From the NCBI GenBank assembly GCA_001516055.1, contig LOEZ01000035.1, positions 1 through 36,172 of the forward strand: a DNA stretch of 36,172 nucleotides, written 5' to 3'. Shown one piece after another: positions 9,188 to 15,860 of the stretch; within the stretch, counting starts at the first letter, position 1; every line of letters starts with the position of its first letter. This DNA comes from Gracilibacter sp. BRH_c7a. GTDB lineage: Bacteria; Bacillota; Desulfitobacteriia; Desulfitobacteriales; Syntrophobotulaceae. The translations under genes and the position numbers were made by a program. The notes beneath the pieces are model-generated. The model was not told where the DNA came from. It did not search any database and was given only the letters and a program-made list of their open reading frames with translations.

Positions 9188-9250
9188 ATGATAATTGAAG
9201 AATATTTAGAAAGAACGTCATTTCTTACGGAGTTACATTTCTTAGCGTAA
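9188..9250 (+). CDS. Possible 20-residue leader ORF before the sigma factor
   Basis: A short frame (MIIEEYLERTSFLTELHFLA) with a well placed AAGAGG seven bases before its ATG, ending 67 bases before the sigma-factor start. It overlaps two CATTTCTTA direct repeats 17 bases apart, so those bases may be a regulatory site and the ORF may be chance. Nothing in the peptide identifies a function. Confidence 0.2.
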   Translation: MIIEEYLERTSFLTELHFLA

Positions 9251-9317
9251 CTTTTAAGAGTTCTAATCGTTAATACATAGTGAAGAGCACGGATATCGAT
9301 GGAGGAGGTGGCTGCTG

Positions 9318-9869
9318 ATGAATTCCAGCAATCTAGCCACAGATGAAAAGGACCTGATAAAACGGGTTAAAAGTAACAAGGAAGTTTTTATTGAAATTTA
9401 TGATGCTCATTTTCAACCAATATATAACTATGCCTTTTACCGCTCCATGAACCATAGCGAGGCTGAGGAAATAGCTTCCCAGACCTTCCTTGCTGCGTTG
9501 GAAAAGATTCAGAGTTTCGAGTATCGCAACATTCCCGTGGTGGTTTGGCTGTATAAAATAGCTTCTAATGCCTTGACCGACCATTATCGCAAGAAAGGGA
9601 AAACTGTGGAGCTGACAAATGATTATGTTAATGTCGATTCCAACTGCGAACCGGAACAAGTGGTTATGGACAGATCAGAAAAGGAACAGTTAATCCAGCA
9701 GCTCAAAGATCTGCCGAGTTTACAGCAACAGGCTCTTGTTCTACGGTATATTCAGGATCTGTCATACAAAGAGATTGCTCAGATTATGGACAAAACAGAA
9801 GGATCGGTCAAACAGCTTCTTCATCGGGGTCTGACCTGTTTACGCGAAAGGATGGTGCGTTATGCCTAA
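9318..9869 (+). CDS. ECF-type RNA polymerase sigma factor
   Basis: A 183-residue sigma-70 family factor of the extracytoplasmic-function type, containing only regions 2 and 4. Region 2 covers about residues 25-95 (YDAHFQPIYNYAFYR, then SEAEEIASQTFLAALEKI, ending in the promoter-melting segment VVVWLYKIASNALTDHYRKK). Region 4 covers about 125-180 (LPSLQQQALVLRYIQDLSY, then the helix-turn-helix KEIAQIMDKTEGSVKQLLHR). GGAGGAGG just upstream gives an excellent ribosome site for ATG 9318. Its end overlaps the following alpha-2-macroglobulin-like gene by 8 bases, so the two are translationally coupled. In this gene order the next gene is normally the membrane anti-sigma factor; here it is the giant A2M-like protein, whose N-terminus may play that role. 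Confidence 0.93.
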   Translation: MNSSNLATDEKDLIKRVKSNKEVFIEIYDAHFQPIYNYAFYRSMNHSEAEEIASQTFLAALEKIQSFEYRNIPVVVWLYKIASNALTDHYRKKGKTVELTNDYVNVDSNCEPEQVVMDRSEKEQLIQQLKDLPSLQQQALVLRYIQDLSYKEIAQIMDKTEGSVKQLLHRGLTCLRERMVRYA

Positions 9870-12800
9870 AGAACCTTTTGAGAATGACACAGAACTTGAC
9901 ACAGAACTTGACACAGAACTTGACACAGAACTCGAAGAACTAGAGAAAGTGATGGGTAATTCGTTTGAAGATATGGACCCTGTTCCTCCTATTAGAGCTG
10001 AATTCAAAGACGAGCTGAGAACTGAATTGCAGAACAAAGTATCCTCCATTAATAAAGGAACATCACTTAGAGGAAGAATAGGCTCTTTTTTGGGCCCTGG
10101 AAAAGGATCAGATGGCTTCCGCAAATGGAAATATGTTATCAGCTTCACTCTGGTAATAGTAATGCTAACTACCATTTTTTGGGGGATGGGTGAACTTGGT
10201 CCTGCACCTGAACCTCTGGATGCCTCTGAAGTGACTATCACTGCCTTAAGTACAGATACGTTGGGGATTGAACTTGATAGTGCTTTTTTATTGACTGGCT
10301 CAGAACCCATGGATGAAAAGACCATAAAAGATAGTTTGAAAACAAATCCGGAGTTTGCTTACAGATTAGATAAACAAGCTGATGGATCAGAGTATAAGAT
10401 TATACCGCAAGAAGAGTTATCCCCCAATACCATCTACACTTTGTCCTTTGACCCCGTAGGGATGGGTTATGAGAATTTGAGCTGGGCTTTCCAGACTAAG
10501 ACCAACTTCCGAGTTATCGGATCTTTACCCGCCGATAGGAGTAGTCATGTTCCTGTTGCAACCGGGATAGAATTAACCTTTTCTCATGAGAACTATGACA
10601 GCCAAAAGATTAACGAGTATTTTACTATGTCACCACAAACAGAAGGGACTTTTGAAAAACACAAAAAGACGACGGTATTTGTCCCTAAGGAATTACAGCC
10701 ATCTACCATTTATACCATCACCTTGAAGAAAGGATTGCCTCTGGTTGGAACCTCCGAAACTCTGAAAGACGATTATGTTTTCAGTTTTGAGACAGCACCC
10801 ATAAATCAAGGGAGTACTGCCTTTGAGTTTAATATGGATACAGCTCTGACTGAATTCAGTACCACGGACATACCGGCTTTTTCTGTTTACTTCTACAATC
10901 AGTACCAATCGGGAAATAACGCTGCTAACACTCCTTCTCTCCATATCGATCTCTATCGCTACCCTGATTATAAAGATTTCCAATCTTCCTTGGCCAAACG
11001 AGACTTGATTCCCAGTTGGTCATACTTTGCTTGGAATGGTTATCGAGAAGAACTCAATCCTCAGTACAGGATAGCTGATTACGATACTGAATTCCTCCGT
11101 GTAGATCAGTATAGCCATTATATTGTCTTTCCCGAGGAATTGGAGGCTGGCTATTACGCAGCTGAACTTAAGGCAGATGACGCTGTCAGGCAGGTTTGGT
11201 TTCAGGTTAGTGACTTAGCAGTTTATCAAGCTCAAGGAGAAACAAATACTTTATTTTGGGTAAATGATTTGCAGACCAAAACCCCTGTTTCTGATTTCGA
11301 GGTAATTATCGACAGTAAGAACCTATCAACTAAAGGAGATGGAACAGGAGCAGTACTAATCGAAGAAGAGTTGATGGGAACAAATCGAGATTATGCCCTT
11401 ATCAAGAGCGGCATTAGAGAGCTGTTAGTTCCATTAGAGGCAAGGCCAGAACACATCAAGAGTGGCTCCACCTCAAAAGATTATTGGAAATATTTCTACC
11501 TCGACAGAGAGCTGTATCAACCAGAAGATATCATCAATTTCTGGGGAGTCTTATCGTCCAGAGATCAAGCTGGAACACAACCTAACGAGATTACTTTAGA
11601 GCTTCGGGGAACTGATGGTCCTTATCACCGAGGTGCTGAAGATAGTCCGATTCTAACCAGAAAAATATCAGTCAAAGACAAAACGTATACCGGCCAAATG
11701 AAATTGCCAGTTCTTAAACCAGGTTATTATTACATCCAGCTTAAAATAGGAGATATGTTCCTCCTTTCCAGAGGATTCTCAGTTGAGACTTATCAAAAAC
11801 CATCTTATAAACTTACCCTGACCCAAGACAAAAAGGCAATATTTGCGGGAGAAAGTCTAGGATTCAAGGCTAAAACTGCTTTCTTTGAAGGGACTCCGGT
11901 ATCAGGCACACAATTAAATTATAATATTGAGTCCAGTAATGGTACTGTTACCACCGACGACAAAGGGGAAGCTGAGATTTCTTATAAAGGCTTCACTCAG
12001 CAGGAGGATTACAGTCCTTATCGCTACGTTTCCATGTGGGTAAATGCAGTACTCCCGGAAGTCGGAGAGATAGCTACTTCAACTGATTTTTATGTATTTA
12101 AGAGTAAGGTTTATATTACAGGAGAGGCAAAGCGGCAGGCAGATAGTTATACCCTCACCGCTAAACTGTCTGAAGTGGATCTGACAGATATCAATAACGG
12201 CCAGTATATCTCAGAAGAACACTTCCTCAAAGATGCTGTTGCCAATAGTCCAATTAAAGCCAACCTCTACCAAGAGGTGTGGACCAAAGTAGAGTCAGGT
12301 CAACAGTATAATTTTATAAGTAAACAAGTGGAGAAGATATATCACTATAATTATTCTACGAAACATATTAATGAATTTGAACTTATTACAGATGCTGATG
12401 GGACAATCAACCATACAGGGGAATTGGATCCTGAGAACTCCTATTACATCGAGCTGACTGCAGTGGACAGCGATGACCGTCAGTTCACTCGCAGGCTTTA
12501 CGTTGGCAGCGATAGGCACAACAGTCCTGACTATCAACATTACTACCTGCAGACTTCACCTGAAATAGACGGATATCTACCTGGGGATGATGTGTTGGTC
12601 ACAATGATGGTCAACGATAGGGAATTGAAGGCGGCTGATAATAGTATTCTTTTCTACAGAGGTCAAAAATTCATTGACTCCCACCAGGTAACTGGTAATC
12701 CTAAATATGGCTTTACTTTTACCAACGAAAATATCCCCAATATCATTGTCTATGGTGTTTACTTCGATGGATATACCTATCATGAGGCTTATTCGATAAA

Positions 12801-14976
12801 TATACCCTTTGCCCGTGATTCGAGAGCCCTGGAAATCAATATAGAATCAGACCGGCAGGAGTATAAGCCTGGAGACACGGTAAAGCTGGAGGTAATGGTT
12901 AGTGACGCTAACCATAAGCCTATAAAAGGAGCACAAGTCAATTTAAACCTCGTTGATGAAGCTTTATTCAGCTTACGTGAACAAAATGTTAACTTCCTGA
13001 ATAGCCTCTACGGGGATTACTTGTATCCCTATCTCAATACCAGAAAGTCTCACGATCATCCTGAATTTCGGGGTGGAGCGGAGAGTGGAGGAGAAGGGGG
13101 ATCGGACCGTAAGGATTTCCGTGATACAGTAGTTTTTACTACCATTCAGACTGACGCTAATGGCAAGGCAAGCATAGAATTCGAACTACCGGATAATCTT
13201 ACTTCTTGGCGGGTAACATACCACGCTTTTACCGATGAGCTTCAGGCAGGAAGTGGGACCAAGCAGATTCCAGTAAGATTGCCCTTCTTTATTGAGATGA
13301 CTTTAAATAATTCCTATCTGGAAGGGGATTCTCCTCTGGTTATTCTCCGTTCGTTTGGAGATAAACTGCAGGGTGCGAAGGAAGTAGCATATACTATGAA
13401 ACTGATAGATCCTCAGGGTAAGGAACAGACCTGGAAAGAAAATGCATTATCTTTTACACCATTGGATTGGAAATTGCCTGAACTAAAAGCTGGTAAATAT
13501 AGCCTAACTGTTTCCGCCGCTTATAATGGCCTCAGCGATACTCTTACCAAGGAATTCATGGTAGTAAGCTCTTTCCAAGAAAGGACTATCACTTACATTG
13601 AGTTATTACAAGAAGGTATAGGAATTGAAGGTTCTCAGGTATCACCTACCACGGTAATCTTTAGTGATTATGAAAAAGGACAATACCTCAGGGGGCTGTA
13701 CCAATTAGCTTGGAATAATGGCAGCCGCTTAGAACAAAAACTCACATCGCTTGAAGCAAAAAAACTTTTGCAAGAGTATTTCCCTGAGGAACCAGAATAT
13801 TCTCAGATGATAGAAGATCAAGATTCCCTTCTGCTCTACCAAAAACCGGACGGTGGAATCAGTATCCTGCCTTATGGGGAGAGTGAACTGACTTTATCTG
13901 CCATGGTAGCTTCCACAACTCCGGAACTATTCGACAGTAAGGCTTTGTGTGGGTACTTCTATCGCGTAATGGAAGAAGGGCAAGAAGATAACATGAGTCT
14001 GGCCCTCTTGGGGCTAGCAGCCCTCAAAGAACCTGTACTTCTTGATATTAAAAACTATTTACTGGAAAAAGAATTGGAACCCGCAGTGAGAATAAACCTA
14101 GCCCTGGCTCTGCTAGATATAGGAGATGGTGCTTACGCCCAAGAAGTATTTCAGGAGTTACTAACCCTCTACAGTCAAGACTTAGGTGTGGTGATGAGAA
14201 TCAATGTAGGGCGTGATCAGGATGAAATAATCCAAGCCACTACTCAAATGGCTCTTCTGGCTGCACGTCTCAATCAACCGCAAAAGAATAAACTCTATCA
14301 GTATCTCCTCGAAAATCAAGGCAAAGATATTCTCAACACAGTGGAACAATTACAGATTCTAAAGTATAACCTAAAGTTTATGAAGCCTACGCCAGTGAGC
14401 TTCACCTACGAACTCAATGGTGAAAAAGTTAATAAAGAGCTTGTTGGCAACGATCTTTTTAAATTAACCCTATTACCGGAAGATCTGCAAGAAATCAGAT
14501 TCAGCCATGTAGAAGGTAAAGTAGGAATAATGAGGAAATATACGCTTCCAATTCCGGCTGGAGAGACAGGAGACAGTGTAGACCTGATGATCAGCCGAAC
14601 CTATATGGTTGATGATAATAAAGCTACTACTTTTAACAGATCAGACCTTATTAAAGTAGTGATAAACAGCAATATTGGCGATAAAGCGCCAGCGGGACTA
14701 TACGAAATCGTGGATATTCTGCCTGCAGGTCTAACCCATGTTTCTCAGCCCTATAATTATTATGAGTATGATAAGAATCAGACTCGTTGGGATTATCCTT
14801 CTGAAGTCAATGGCCAAAAACTAGTCTTCCTATTAGGCAAAGGCAACCATGAAATCACATATTTAGCTCGTGTCATTTCACCTGGTGAGTTCACCTGTGA
14901 AGCCCCGGTTCTAAACAATATTAAGAACAATACCATCTATACAAGTGGCAGTAAGGACAGGATAGTAATTGAATGA
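9862..14976 (+). CDS. Membrane-anchored alpha-2-macroglobulin-like protein with anti-sigma-like N-terminus
   Basis: A 1704-residue protein. Residues 1-90 are cytoplasmic and acidic, with a TELD repeat (10-25) and a segment PIRAEFKDELRTEL (about 43-56) like the membrane-proximal tail seen in many anti-sigma factors. Residues 91-109 form the only membrane span. Outside are two SbsA/Big_5-type Ig-like domains (about 125-315), a series of macroglobulin domains (MG2 near 640-690), a low-complexity bait-like segment GGAESGGEGGSDRKD (about 1070), the A2M core (DTVVFTTIQTDANGKASIEF, LPDNLTSWRV), an alpha-toroid (about 1280-1530) and a C-terminal beta domain (VDILPAGLTHV). At the thioester position the sequence is GSRLEQ (1287-1292), so the cysteine of CxEQ is Arg1289: no thioester can form. 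Length is close to E. coli YfhM (about 1650). It overlaps genes on both sides (8 and 4 bases). Bacterial A2Ms trap proteases; here a sensing role for the sigma factor is my inference. Confidence 0.9.
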   Translation: MPKEPFENDTELDTELDTELDTELEELEKVMGNSFEDMDPVPPIRAEFKDELRTELQNKVSSINKGTSLRGRIGSFLGPGKGSDGFRKWKYVISFTLVIVMLTTIFWGMGELGPAPEPLDASEVTITALSTDTLGIELDSAFLLTGSEPMDEKTIKDSLKTNPEFAYRLDKQADGSEYKIIPQEELSPNTIYTLSFDPVGMGYENLSWAFQTKTNFRVIGSLPADRSSHVPVATGIELTFSHENYDSQKINEYFTMSPQTEGTFEKHKKTTVFVPKELQPSTIYTITLKKGLPLVGTSETLKDDYVFSFETAPINQGSTAFEFNMDTALTEFSTTDIPAFSVYFYNQYQSGNNAANTPSLHIDLYRYPDYKDFQSSLAKRDLIPSWSYFAWNGYREELNPQYRIADYDTEFLRVDQYSHYIVFPEELEAGYYAAELKADDAVRQVWFQVSDLAVYQAQGETNTLFWVNDLQTKTPVSDFEVIIDSKNLSTKGDGTGAVLIEEELMGTNRDYALIKSGIRELLVPLEARPEHIKSGSTSKDYWKYFYLDRELYQPEDIINFWGVLSSRDQAGTQPNEITLELRGTDGPYHRGAEDSPILTRKISVKDKTYTGQMKLPVLKPGYYYIQLKIGDMFLLSRGFSVETYQKPSYKLTLTQDKKAIFAGESLGFKAKTAFFEGTPVSGTQLNYNIESSNGTVTTDDKGEAEISYKGFTQQEDYSPYRYVSMWVNAVLPEVGEIATSTDFYVFKSKVYITGEAKRQADSYTLTAKLSEVDLTDINNGQYISEEHFLKDAVANSPIKANLYQEVWTKVESGQQYNFISKQVEKIYHYNYSTKHINEFELITDADGTINHTGELDPENSYYIELTAVDSDDRQFTRRLYVGSDRHNSPDYQHYYLQTSPEIDGYLPGDDVLVTMMVNDRELKAADNSILFYRGQKFIDSHQVTGNPKYGFTFTNENIPNIIVYGVYFDGYTYHEAYSINIPFARDSRALEINIESDRQEYKPGDTVKLEVMVSDANHKPIKGAQVNLNLVDEALFSLREQNVNFLNSLYGDYLYPYLNTRKSHDHPEFRGGAESGGEGGSDRKDFRDTVVFTTIQTDANGKASIEFELPDNLTSWRVTYHAFTDELQAGSGTKQIPVRLPFFIEMTLNNSYLEGDSPLVILRSFGDKLQGAKEVAYTMKLIDPQGKEQTWKENALSFTPLDWKLPELKAGKYSLTVSAAYNGLSDTLTKEFMVVSSFQERTITYIELLQEGIGIEGSQVSPTTVIFSDYEKGQYLRGLYQLAWNNGSRLEQKLTSLEAKKLLQEYFPEEPEYSQMIEDQDSLLLYQKPDGGISILPYGESELTLSAMVASTTPELFDSKALCGYFYRVMEEGQEDNMSLALLGLAALKEPVLLDIKNYLLEKELEPAVRINLALALLDIGDGAYAQEVFQELLTLYSQDLGVVMRINVGRDQDEIIQATTQMALLAARLNQPQKNKLYQYLLENQGKDILNTVEQLQILKYNLKFMKPTPVSFTYELNGEKVNKELVGNDLFKLTLLPEDLQEIRFSHVEGKVGIMRKYTLPIPAGETGDSVDLMISRTYMVDDNKATTFNRSDLIKVVINSNIGDKAPAGLYEIVDILPAGLTHVSQPYNYYEYDKNQTRWDYPSEVNGQKLVFLLGKGNHEITYLARVISPGEFTCEAPVLNNIKNNTIYTSGSKDRIVIE
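9886..9933 (+). repeat. Four tandem 12-base repeats encoding TELD
   Basis: GACACAGAACTT is repeated four times head to tail (last copy ends in C instead of T), within the first 25 codons of the A2M-like gene. The unit is a multiple of three, so copy-number change would lengthen or shorten the acidic cytoplasmic tail without a frameshift. Confidence 0.95.
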
Positions 14977-15860
14977 GATTAAAACAAAGTCGGACAGTTC
15001 AATGGTTGATTCTCCTAGTCTGTGTCCTGACCATAGTGATATGGGGCAGTAAAGATACAGACTCAGTCAGGAGGGAGGAGGTCAACTCCACCCACCCTAG
15101 TTTTGTCACTGGTCAGGAGTTAAACTCAATCCTAGCTGTCAAAACAGAAAAACAACCTATTATTGAAGGCCGGATAGTGAGTATGGTTGTTCCTCATCAT
15201 TTGGTAGCTAGCCGCCTTTTAGTTCAAGTAATGGAAATACTGGTTCCTCAACAACCTACGGTCGTAATAGTCATCGGTCCAAACCATTATAACAGTGGCG
15301 GTAAAACCATCACCGGTCTGAATGATTGGCTTAGCCCCAATGGAGTTATAGAAACTGAAGCTAATACAGTTAAAGCCCTTCTGGATAAAGGGCTGGCTGT
15401 AAGGGATGAAGAGACTCTATCAAAGGAGCATTCTATTGGGGCCTTGGTTCCTCTTCTTAAACACTATCTCCCCGAGACAAAAATTGTTCCTATTATTCTC
15501 CATCATGATGTCAGTCTTCAGGAAGTAGATGGGATTCTTCAAGCCTTGGAACCCTTCCTGGCTCAAGATGCAGTTGTCATCTCTTCCGTTGATTTCTCCC
15601 ATTACCTCACCAGAAGCCAGGCGCAAGCTAAAGATGAAGAGACTTTAAGGCATATGAATAATTTTGATTATCCTACCATCTTCCGTCTGGGAAATGACTA
15701 CCTGGATTCTCCGGCATCATTGGCAGCAGCATTTCGACTGGCAGAAAAACGCGGCATTAAGGAGTTTACTGTCCTTGATAATACGAACTCGGGAATAATT
15801 ATGCAGAATGATTTTATCGAGACAACCAGCTATTTTACCTTGGTGTTTCATACTACGTAA
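14973..15860 (+). CDS. Membrane-anchored MEMO-family protein (AmmeMemoRadiSam protein B)
   Basis: A 295-residue MEMO family protein, a fold related to class III extradiol dioxygenases. An N-terminal hydrophobic segment (residues 9-25, VQWLILLVCVLTIVIWG) makes it exported or membrane-anchored, unlike the usual cytoplasmic members. Conserved family motifs are present: VPHH (His75/76), GPNHY (His105), EHSIGALVPLL (Glu152-His153), VPIIL, and SSVDFSHYL (Asp207, His210). The next conserved position, occupied by a metal-binding cysteine in human MEMO1, appears as DSPASL with Ser246. The start overlaps the A2M-like stop by 4 bases (ATGA), making it the third gene of the sigma-A2M-MEMO operon. The AMMECR1 and radical-SAM partners named in the family title are absent, so this member works elsewhere, on the outer membrane face with the A2M protein. 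Reaction unknown. Confidence 0.9.
   Translation: MRLKQSRTVQWLILLVCVLTIVIWGSKDTDSVRREEVNSTHPSFVTGQELNSILAVKTEKQPIIEGRIVSMVVPHHLVASRLLVQVMEILVPQQPTVVIVIGPNHYNSGGKTITGLNDWLSPNGVIETEANTVKALLDKGLAVRDEETLSKEHSIGALVPLLKHYLPETKIVPIILHHDVSLQEVDGILQALEPFLAQDAVVISSVDFSHYLTRSQAQAKDEETLRHMNNFDYPTIFRLGNDYLDSPASLAAAFRLAEKRGIKEFTVLDNTNSGIIMQNDFIETTSYFTLVFHTT

What the first reader, a model, noticed from the sequence alone, without database searches (positions are those of the whole stretch)
9318..15860. ECF sigma - A2M - MEMO operon with a fused anti-sigma-like tail
Three genes overlap by 8 and 4 bases: an ECF sigma factor, a 1704-residue single-span A2M-like protein and a membrane-anchored MEMO-family protein. 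No separate anti-sigma gene is present; the A2M protein has a 90-residue cytoplasmic N-terminus with a segment (PIRAEFKDELRTEL) like the tails of membrane anti-sigma factors. This suggests a sensor in which cleavage or binding of the outside A2M module releases the sigma factor. Bacterial A2Ms are usually paired with PbpC; a pairing with ECF sigma and MEMO is not one I know.
Basis: partly seen in the sequence, partly recalled or inferred. Interest (0 to 1): 0.65.

Follow-up and report, generated by a model that had tools for sequence, protein, structure and literature searches.

The report
Macroglobulin protein fused to anti-sigma tail
A bacterial operon links a gene switch (an ECF sigma factor) to a large surface alpha-2-macroglobulin whose inner tail looks like the switch's own inhibitor, so a protein of the complement family outside the cell probably controls transcription inside it; the pairing recurs in several bacterial lineages and I found no published description.

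Summary
In detail: an ECF sigma (9318-9869), a 1704-aa single-span A2M (9862-14976) and an anchored Memo protein (14973-15860) overlap by 8 and 4 bases. The A2M's cytoplasmic tail resembles the anti-sigma domains found beside BldN-like sigmas. A profile built only from non-A2M anti-sigmas hits it (E 1.5e-5), and profile-profile comparison gives P 2.9e-6; sigma-less A2Ms give nothing. Among 86 A2M loci, sigma and tail co-occur in 19 and are both absent in 65. The two exceptions carry a decayed sigma gene beside an intact tail. A BldN-type promoter (CGTAAC-N16-CGTTAA; published S. coelicolor BldN site CGTAAC-N16-CGTTGA) lies 72 bp upstream and is the only exact match in the 4.1-Mb genome, so the operon looks self-regulated. 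The A2M fold is confirmed, but the thioester motif CxEQ is replaced by an invariant RxEQ. Memo adjoins A2M in 63 of 70 named loci, mostly without sigma, so A2M-Memo is the older, broader pair. A2M-linked sigmas come from at least three ECF types. Most likely the A2M is a transmembrane anti-sigma with a macroglobulin ectodomain. What triggers release, and direct sigma-tail contact, remain untested.

The parts
9246..9279 (+). operon promoter: -35 CGTAAC (9246-9251), N16, -10 CGTTAA (9268-9273), extended TACATA
   Evidence: Only exact match of CGTAAC-N16-CGTTWA in the 4.1-Mb genome; exactly one match, at the same place, in G001, G002 and G204; <=2 mismatches of the extended motif still only here; the published BldN motif is CGTAACN16CGTTGA
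9318..9869 (+). BldN-like ECF sigma factor, 183 aa
   Evidence: Pfam Sigma70_r2/r4_2; best NCBIfam hit TIGR02952 BldN family, 129 bits, below its cut-off; best PDB match 6dxo_A E 9.7e-20
9847..9855 (+). probable ribosome-binding site of the A2M gene (AAAGGATGG), inside the sigma 3' end
   Evidence: Conserved in sigma-bearing loci and in most sigma-less loci at the same spacing
9862..14976 (+). A2M with cytoplasmic anti-sigma-like tail, one TM span and a macroglobulin ectodomain, 1704 aa
   Evidence: Pfam; model of residues 886-1704 matches E. coli and Salmonella A2M
9931..10047 (+). putative anti-sigma domain (A2M residues 24-62; invariant F48, near-invariant L52 and L56)
   Evidence: HMM from 17 non-A2M anti-sigmas hits the tail at E 1.5e-5; hhalign P 2.9e-6; alignment A3
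10135..10191 (+). single transmembrane span of the A2M (residues 92-110)
   Evidence: Hydropathy 2.03
13054..13122 (+). bait-region-like disordered loop (A2M residues 1065-1087)
   Evidence: Model residues 180-202 pLDDT <50 at the bait position; alignment
13726..13737 (+). RLEQ (residues 1289-1292) in place of the thioester CxEQ
   Evidence: No CxEQ in 28 homologues; this Arg invariant in 40
14973..15860 (+). membrane-anchored extracytoplasmic Memo-fold protein, 295 aa
   Evidence: Pfam Memo 79.5 bits; model pLDDT 92.3, Foldseek to human MEMO1 E 8.9e-13; N-terminal span

Best explanation
The operon is a self-contained sigma/anti-sigma circuit. The A2M is a single-pass membrane protein whose cytoplasmic N-terminus (about residues 24-62) is an anti-sigma domain of the kind that accompanies BldN-like ECF sigmas. 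It holds its own sigma at the membrane and inactive. The outside part is a thioester-less (type-II-like) macroglobulin. When its state changes, most likely by proteolysis of the bait loop or of the stalk followed by intramembrane cleavage, or by binding a partner such as the co-encoded Memo protein, the sigma is freed. It then transcribes its own operon from the single BldN-type promoter, making more A2M and Memo. Shown by computation: gene order, tail homology to anti-sigma domains, sigma-tail co-occurrence and co-loss, promoter, A2M and Memo folds, missing thioester. Inferred: sigma binding, the trigger, cleavage, and the role of Memo.
For: Tail profile hits. Co-occurrence in 86 loci: 19 both, 65 neither, 2 exceptions, both with a decayed sigma gene; Fisher p 3.8e-17 ignoring kinship; 6 of 6 independent pairs agree, p 0.031. 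Sigma nearest BldN, crystallised with its anti-sigma RsbN. Promoter CGTAAC-N16-CGTTAA unique in the genome and equal to the BldN motif but for one base. A2M-sigma pairs in Bacillota, Chloroflexota and Uhrbacteria, with several ECF types. Fold models.
Against: No physical contact was tested; a sigma-tail model could not be run. Only 6 of 10 tails score above all 3000 shuffles. The tail profile finds no RsbN chain in the PDB. Tails of the f102, Oscillospiraceae and Uhrbacteria versions are not recognised by the profile. A2M and Memo persist where sigma is lost, so their work does not need it.
Confidence: 0.8

Rival explanations
1. Homeostat without a sensor: the tail binds the sigma, but the ectodomain senses nothing. 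The sigma is free until enough A2M has been inserted, and this feedback keeps A2M and Memo at a set level.
For: The only strict promoter match in the genome is the operon's own; A2M is both product and probable inhibitor; A2M-Memo works without sigma in many relatives.
Against: Most transmembrane anti-sigmas studied respond to an outside or membrane signal (general knowledge); other ECF types were recruited to the same ectodomain, as expected if the ectodomain supplies a signal.
Confidence: 0.2
2. The tail is only a cytoplasmic linker; sigma and A2M share an operon because the sigma makes A2M and Memo, and another protein inhibits the sigma.
For: No direct contact data; tail outside residues 24-62 is variable, low-complexity and charged.
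Against: Anti-sigma profile hits the tail but not sigma-less N-termini; the tail is missing wherever the sigma was lost, except beside sigma pseudogenes; invariant F, near-invariant L shared with bona fide anti-sigmas.
Confidence: 0.07
3. Memo is the sensor: an extracytoplasmic dioxygenase-fold protein binds a small molecule or metal and changes A2M, which then releases the sigma. (Overlaps with the best explanation.)
For: Memo adjoins A2M in 63 of 70 loci, often by 4-bp overlap; fold as MEMO1; invariant His residues.
Against: Memo is kept equally in loci without sigma, so its task is not tied to signalling; human MEMO1 has a Cys metal ligand, and the window Memo domain has no Cys.
Confidence: 0.15

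Closest known systems
BldN-RsbN of Streptomyces (ECF sigma with ASDIII anti-sigma)
   Same: Sigma nearest 6dxo_A; promoter CGTAAC-N16-CGTT; anti-sigma-like domain in the cytoplasmic N-terminus of a single-pass protein encoded next to the sigma
   Different: The ectodomain is a 1600-residue A2M; RsbN was not recovered by sequence profile; sigma is below the TIGR02952 cut-off; apparent target is its own operon rather than development genes
Type II bacterial A2M (MagD of Pseudomonas aeruginosa, PMC5764988)
   Same: Macroglobulin fold without CxEQ thioester, with a bait-like loop, near the inner membrane
   Different: Own TM span and cytoplasmic tail; partners are ECF sigma and Memo, not the six-gene mag operon
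Type I bacterial A2M (ECAM/YfhM, Salmonella A2M) with PbpC
   Same: Same fold (Foldseek E 3.2e-39; VIA Z 18.3)
   Different: No thioester, no PbpC in the operon
AmmeMemoRadiSam protein B / human MEMO1
   Same: Memo domain and fold (TIGR04336, E 1.8e-30, over cut-off)
   Different: Outside the cell, anchored and paired with A2M; no Cys in the domain; only Memo in this genome

Membership tests
ECF sigma factor | Sigma70 region 2 and region 4 above Pfam cut-offs in a short protein | tested here: met
   r2 44.8 bits (cut-off 24), r4_2 60.9 (25.7)
BldN equivalog (TIGR02952) | Score over the curated cut-off 206.45 bits | tested here: not met
   129 bits, though the best family; no Bacillota genome of 398 passes. 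Hence called BldN-like only
BldN-like sigma | Promoter CGTAAC-N16-CGTTGA | tested here: met
   CGTAAC-N16-CGTTAA upstream, differing at one position; use of it by this sigma is inferred
ASDIII / RsbN anti-sigma class | Cytoplasmic N-terminal domain on a single-pass membrane protein encoded beside its sigma | tested here: met
ASDIII / RsbN anti-sigma class | Sequence similarity to anti-sigma-like domains next to other BldN-like sigmas | tested here: met
ASDIII / RsbN anti-sigma class | Detectable similarity to RsbN itself | tested here: inconclusive
   No PDB hit with the profile or single domains
ASDIII / RsbN anti-sigma class | Helices 1-2 bind sigma4 and helix 3 binds sigma2 | not testable with these tools
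Alpha-2-macroglobulin family | MG, A2M and bait domains above cut-off, and A2M fold with TED toroid | tested here: met
Type I bacterial A2M | CxEQ thioester; pbpC neighbour | tested here: not met
   RLEQ instead; neighbours are sigma and Memo
Type II bacterial A2M | No thioester but a bait region | tested here: met
   bait function not tested
Type II bacterial A2M | mag-type six-gene operon | tested here: not met
   Neighbours are sigma, Memo, DegV and CorA
Memo | Pfam Memo above cut-off and MEMO1 fold | tested here: met
   79.5 bits against 27; Foldseek E 8.9e-13
Memo | His-His-Cys metal site of human MEMO1 | tested here: not met
   His residues of PHH and GPNH invariant but no Cys in the domain

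The most novel reading that the evidence does not exclude
Bacteria use a complement-family macroglobulin as a protease-attack receptor. Cleavage of the bait loop on the cell surface is passed through one membrane span to free an ECF sigma, and this wiring has been built several times with different ECF sigmas on an older A2M-Memo module.
Probability: 0.35. Interest if true: 0.85.

Novelty: new variant of a known kind. Interest (0 to 1): 0.7.

Why it matters
Bacterial A2Ms are known as protease traps; here one appears to be wired straight to transcription, which would make it a sensor. That gives a testable system for what bacterial A2Ms do, for how conformational change in a macroglobulin can signal, and for what extracytoplasmic Memo proteins are for. 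It also adds an A2M ectodomain to anti-sigma factors, with repeated recruitment of different sigmas.

Tried and rejected
Single-protein scan of genome contigs with the A2M found nothing; an alignment query found 79 loci. RsbN could not be reached by sequence in the PDB. The RsbN-BldN and ECF classification papers were not held. Unpaired tail rows misaligned in a mixed alignment and were dropped. The first independent-pair test had too few pairs; the larger tree gave six. I considered f102 sigmas as the same lineage; the sigma tree and AU test (p 0.0085) argue against a single clade, with long branches as a caution. No paper held links a macroglobulin with an anti-sigma in this sense.

Full report
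WHAT IS THERE. Three + strand genes overlap by 8 and 4 bases: an ECF sigma (9318-9869), a 1704-residue A2M (9862-14976) and a Memo protein (14973-15860). Pfam assigns each above its cut-off. The sigma's best NCBIfam family is TIGR02952 (BldN), 129 bits against a cut-off of 206, and its best solved relative is 6dxo_A, the Streptomyces BldN solved with its anti-sigma RsbN. A2M and Memo are single copies in the genome. Upstream is a DegV gene and downstream a CorA gene.

RELATIVES: SIGMA AND TAIL GO TOGETHER. In the family, A2M homologues of two other genera (L010/L031 and L011/L032) have the sigma and an extended cytoplasmic tail. Those of the other closely related genera have neither; they start 10 to 42 residues before the membrane span and keep Memo. 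A distant class holds more sigma-A2M-Memo operons (L143, L145, L146, L147; sigma-A2M in L164) and more sigma-less ones. In L141 and L153 the sigma has decayed to a 3' remnant while the tail is intact, so the sigma can go first. Over 86 non-redundant loci: 19 with both, 65 with neither, 2 discordant, those two pseudogene loci. Fisher p is 3.8e-17 but ignores kinship; on supported branches 6 of 6 independent pairs agree (p 0.031). The tail threshold was 47 residues, with an SD-guided start choice for the loci added later. In the better-sampled clade the tree suggests an ancestral sigma lost several times, though deep branching is partly unresolved.

THE TAIL IS AN ANTI-SIGMA DOMAIN BY SEQUENCE. 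Genes downstream of other BldN-like sigmas in Bacillota encode single-span proteins with an N-terminal F-x3-L-[RK]-x2-L motif. These are called anti-sigmas from their place and architecture, not from experiments. An HMM built from 17 of them, no A2M included, gives the window tail E 1.5e-5 in a set with 3000 shuffled tails; 6 of 10 tails beat every shuffle; no sigma-less N-terminus was among the hits listed. Profile against profile gives probability 88%, P 2.9e-6 over 42 columns; the control with sigma-less N-termini gives 0.4%. In alignment A3 the Phe is invariant and two Leu are nearly so. The closest non-A2M anti-sigmas (L172, L187) share the upstream LE(Q/K)..IG pattern too. RsbN itself was not recovered.

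PROMOTER. CGTAAC-N16-CGTTWATACATA precedes the sigma gene in the window, L031, L032 and L143, and L145 has the core. The core occurs exactly once in the whole genome, at 9246-9273, and exactly once, at the operon, in G001, G002 and G204; G258 has its one match at a contig end that carries the start of its sigma gene. With the extended motif and up to 2 mismatches, the operon is still the only hit in G000, G001, G002, G473, G204 and G258; hits at 3 mismatches are about as many as the control pattern gives. S. coelicolor BldN is reported to recognise CGTAACN16CGTTGA (PMC2375139). Sigma-less loci lack it; L033 keeps a degraded copy 63 bp before A2M, and the decayed loci keep only the -35 half. 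So the sigma probably serves mainly its own operon; weaker targets are not excluded. The A2M's ribosome-binding sequence AAAGGATGG lies in the sigma 3' end and survives in most sigma-less loci.

A2M AND MEMO. The model of residues 886-1704 (pLDDT 85.9) matches E. coli A2M (Foldseek E 3.2e-39; VIA Z 18.3, rmsd 5.2, 655 aligned), with a full helical toroid and a disordered loop at the bait position. No homologue has CxEQ; RxEQ stands there, the Arg invariant in 40 sequences. Thioester-less MagD still traps proteases (PMC5764988). Memo (pLDDT 92.3) matches human MEMO1 at E 8.9e-13; it is anchored by a span here and by a lipobox-like motif in many relatives, and its domain has no Cys. Memo adjoins A2M in 63 of 70 named loci with enough downstream sequence, from Bacillota, Chloroflexota, Collierbacteria, Uhrbacteria and WOR-1. 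The pair is therefore wider, and probably older, than the sigma link.

RECURRENCE. Sigma plus tailed A2M also occurs in Uhrbacteria (L299, L300) and a Chloroflexi genome (L309, tail LPDSEFKERLGAELV), both with BldN-like sigmas; in Oscillospiraceae-type genomes (L304, L308, L319; sigma-C-like); and in f102 (TIGR02954-like). One clade of all A2M-linked sigmas is rejected (AU p 0.0085), with long branches as a caution. f102 operons carry another motif, GGAACA-N16-CATC.

MECHANISM. Shown: architecture, homology, co-occurrence, promoter, folds. From the literature: ASDIII anti-sigmas bind sigma4 and sigma2 (PMC7406223). Inferred: the tail holds the sigma; a change in the ectodomain frees it; the freed sigma raises sigma, A2M and Memo. 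Whether the change is bait cleavage, stalk proteolysis, partner binding or simple titration is open.

VERDICT. It is a new variant of a known kind: a transmembrane anti-sigma with a macroglobulin ectodomain.

Noticed in passing
L055, L075, L093, L094, L098, L107, L108 (G000:C38), L167, L173: Other BldN-like sigmas are followed by small soluble proteins, most with an anti-sigma-like stretch, plus an acidic ELxDxDLxxVAGG-like element (resembling double-glycine leader peptides), some ending in a zinc ribbon.
   Followed up: no
L159, L160, L165 upstream of sigma: f102 sigma-A2M operons share GGAACA-N16-CATC, a different ECF-type promoter in front of the same kind of operon.
   Followed up: partly
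L141 and L153, upstream of A2M: Fossil sigma genes: only the 3' part remains next to an intact A2M tail.
   Followed up: yes
L033 63 bp upstream of A2M; L249, L252, L257 A2M starts: Relics in sigma-less loci: a degraded operon promoter (L033), and a sequence encoding (RE)RMVA at or before the A2M start that resembles the sigma 3' end.
   Followed up: partly
L245-L323: A2M-Memo gene pairs across Bacillota, Patescibacteria, Chloroflexota and WOR-1, often with a 4-base overlap; function of an extracytoplasmic Memo unknown.
   Followed up: partly
9886-9933: Tandem 12-base repeat giving (D)TELDTELDTELDTEL in the A2M tail, before the anti-sigma motif; not conserved in relatives.
   Followed up: no
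L018 / L039 (G007): A2M reading frame of this genome is reported with one in-frame TAA in the matched stretch.
   Followed up: no
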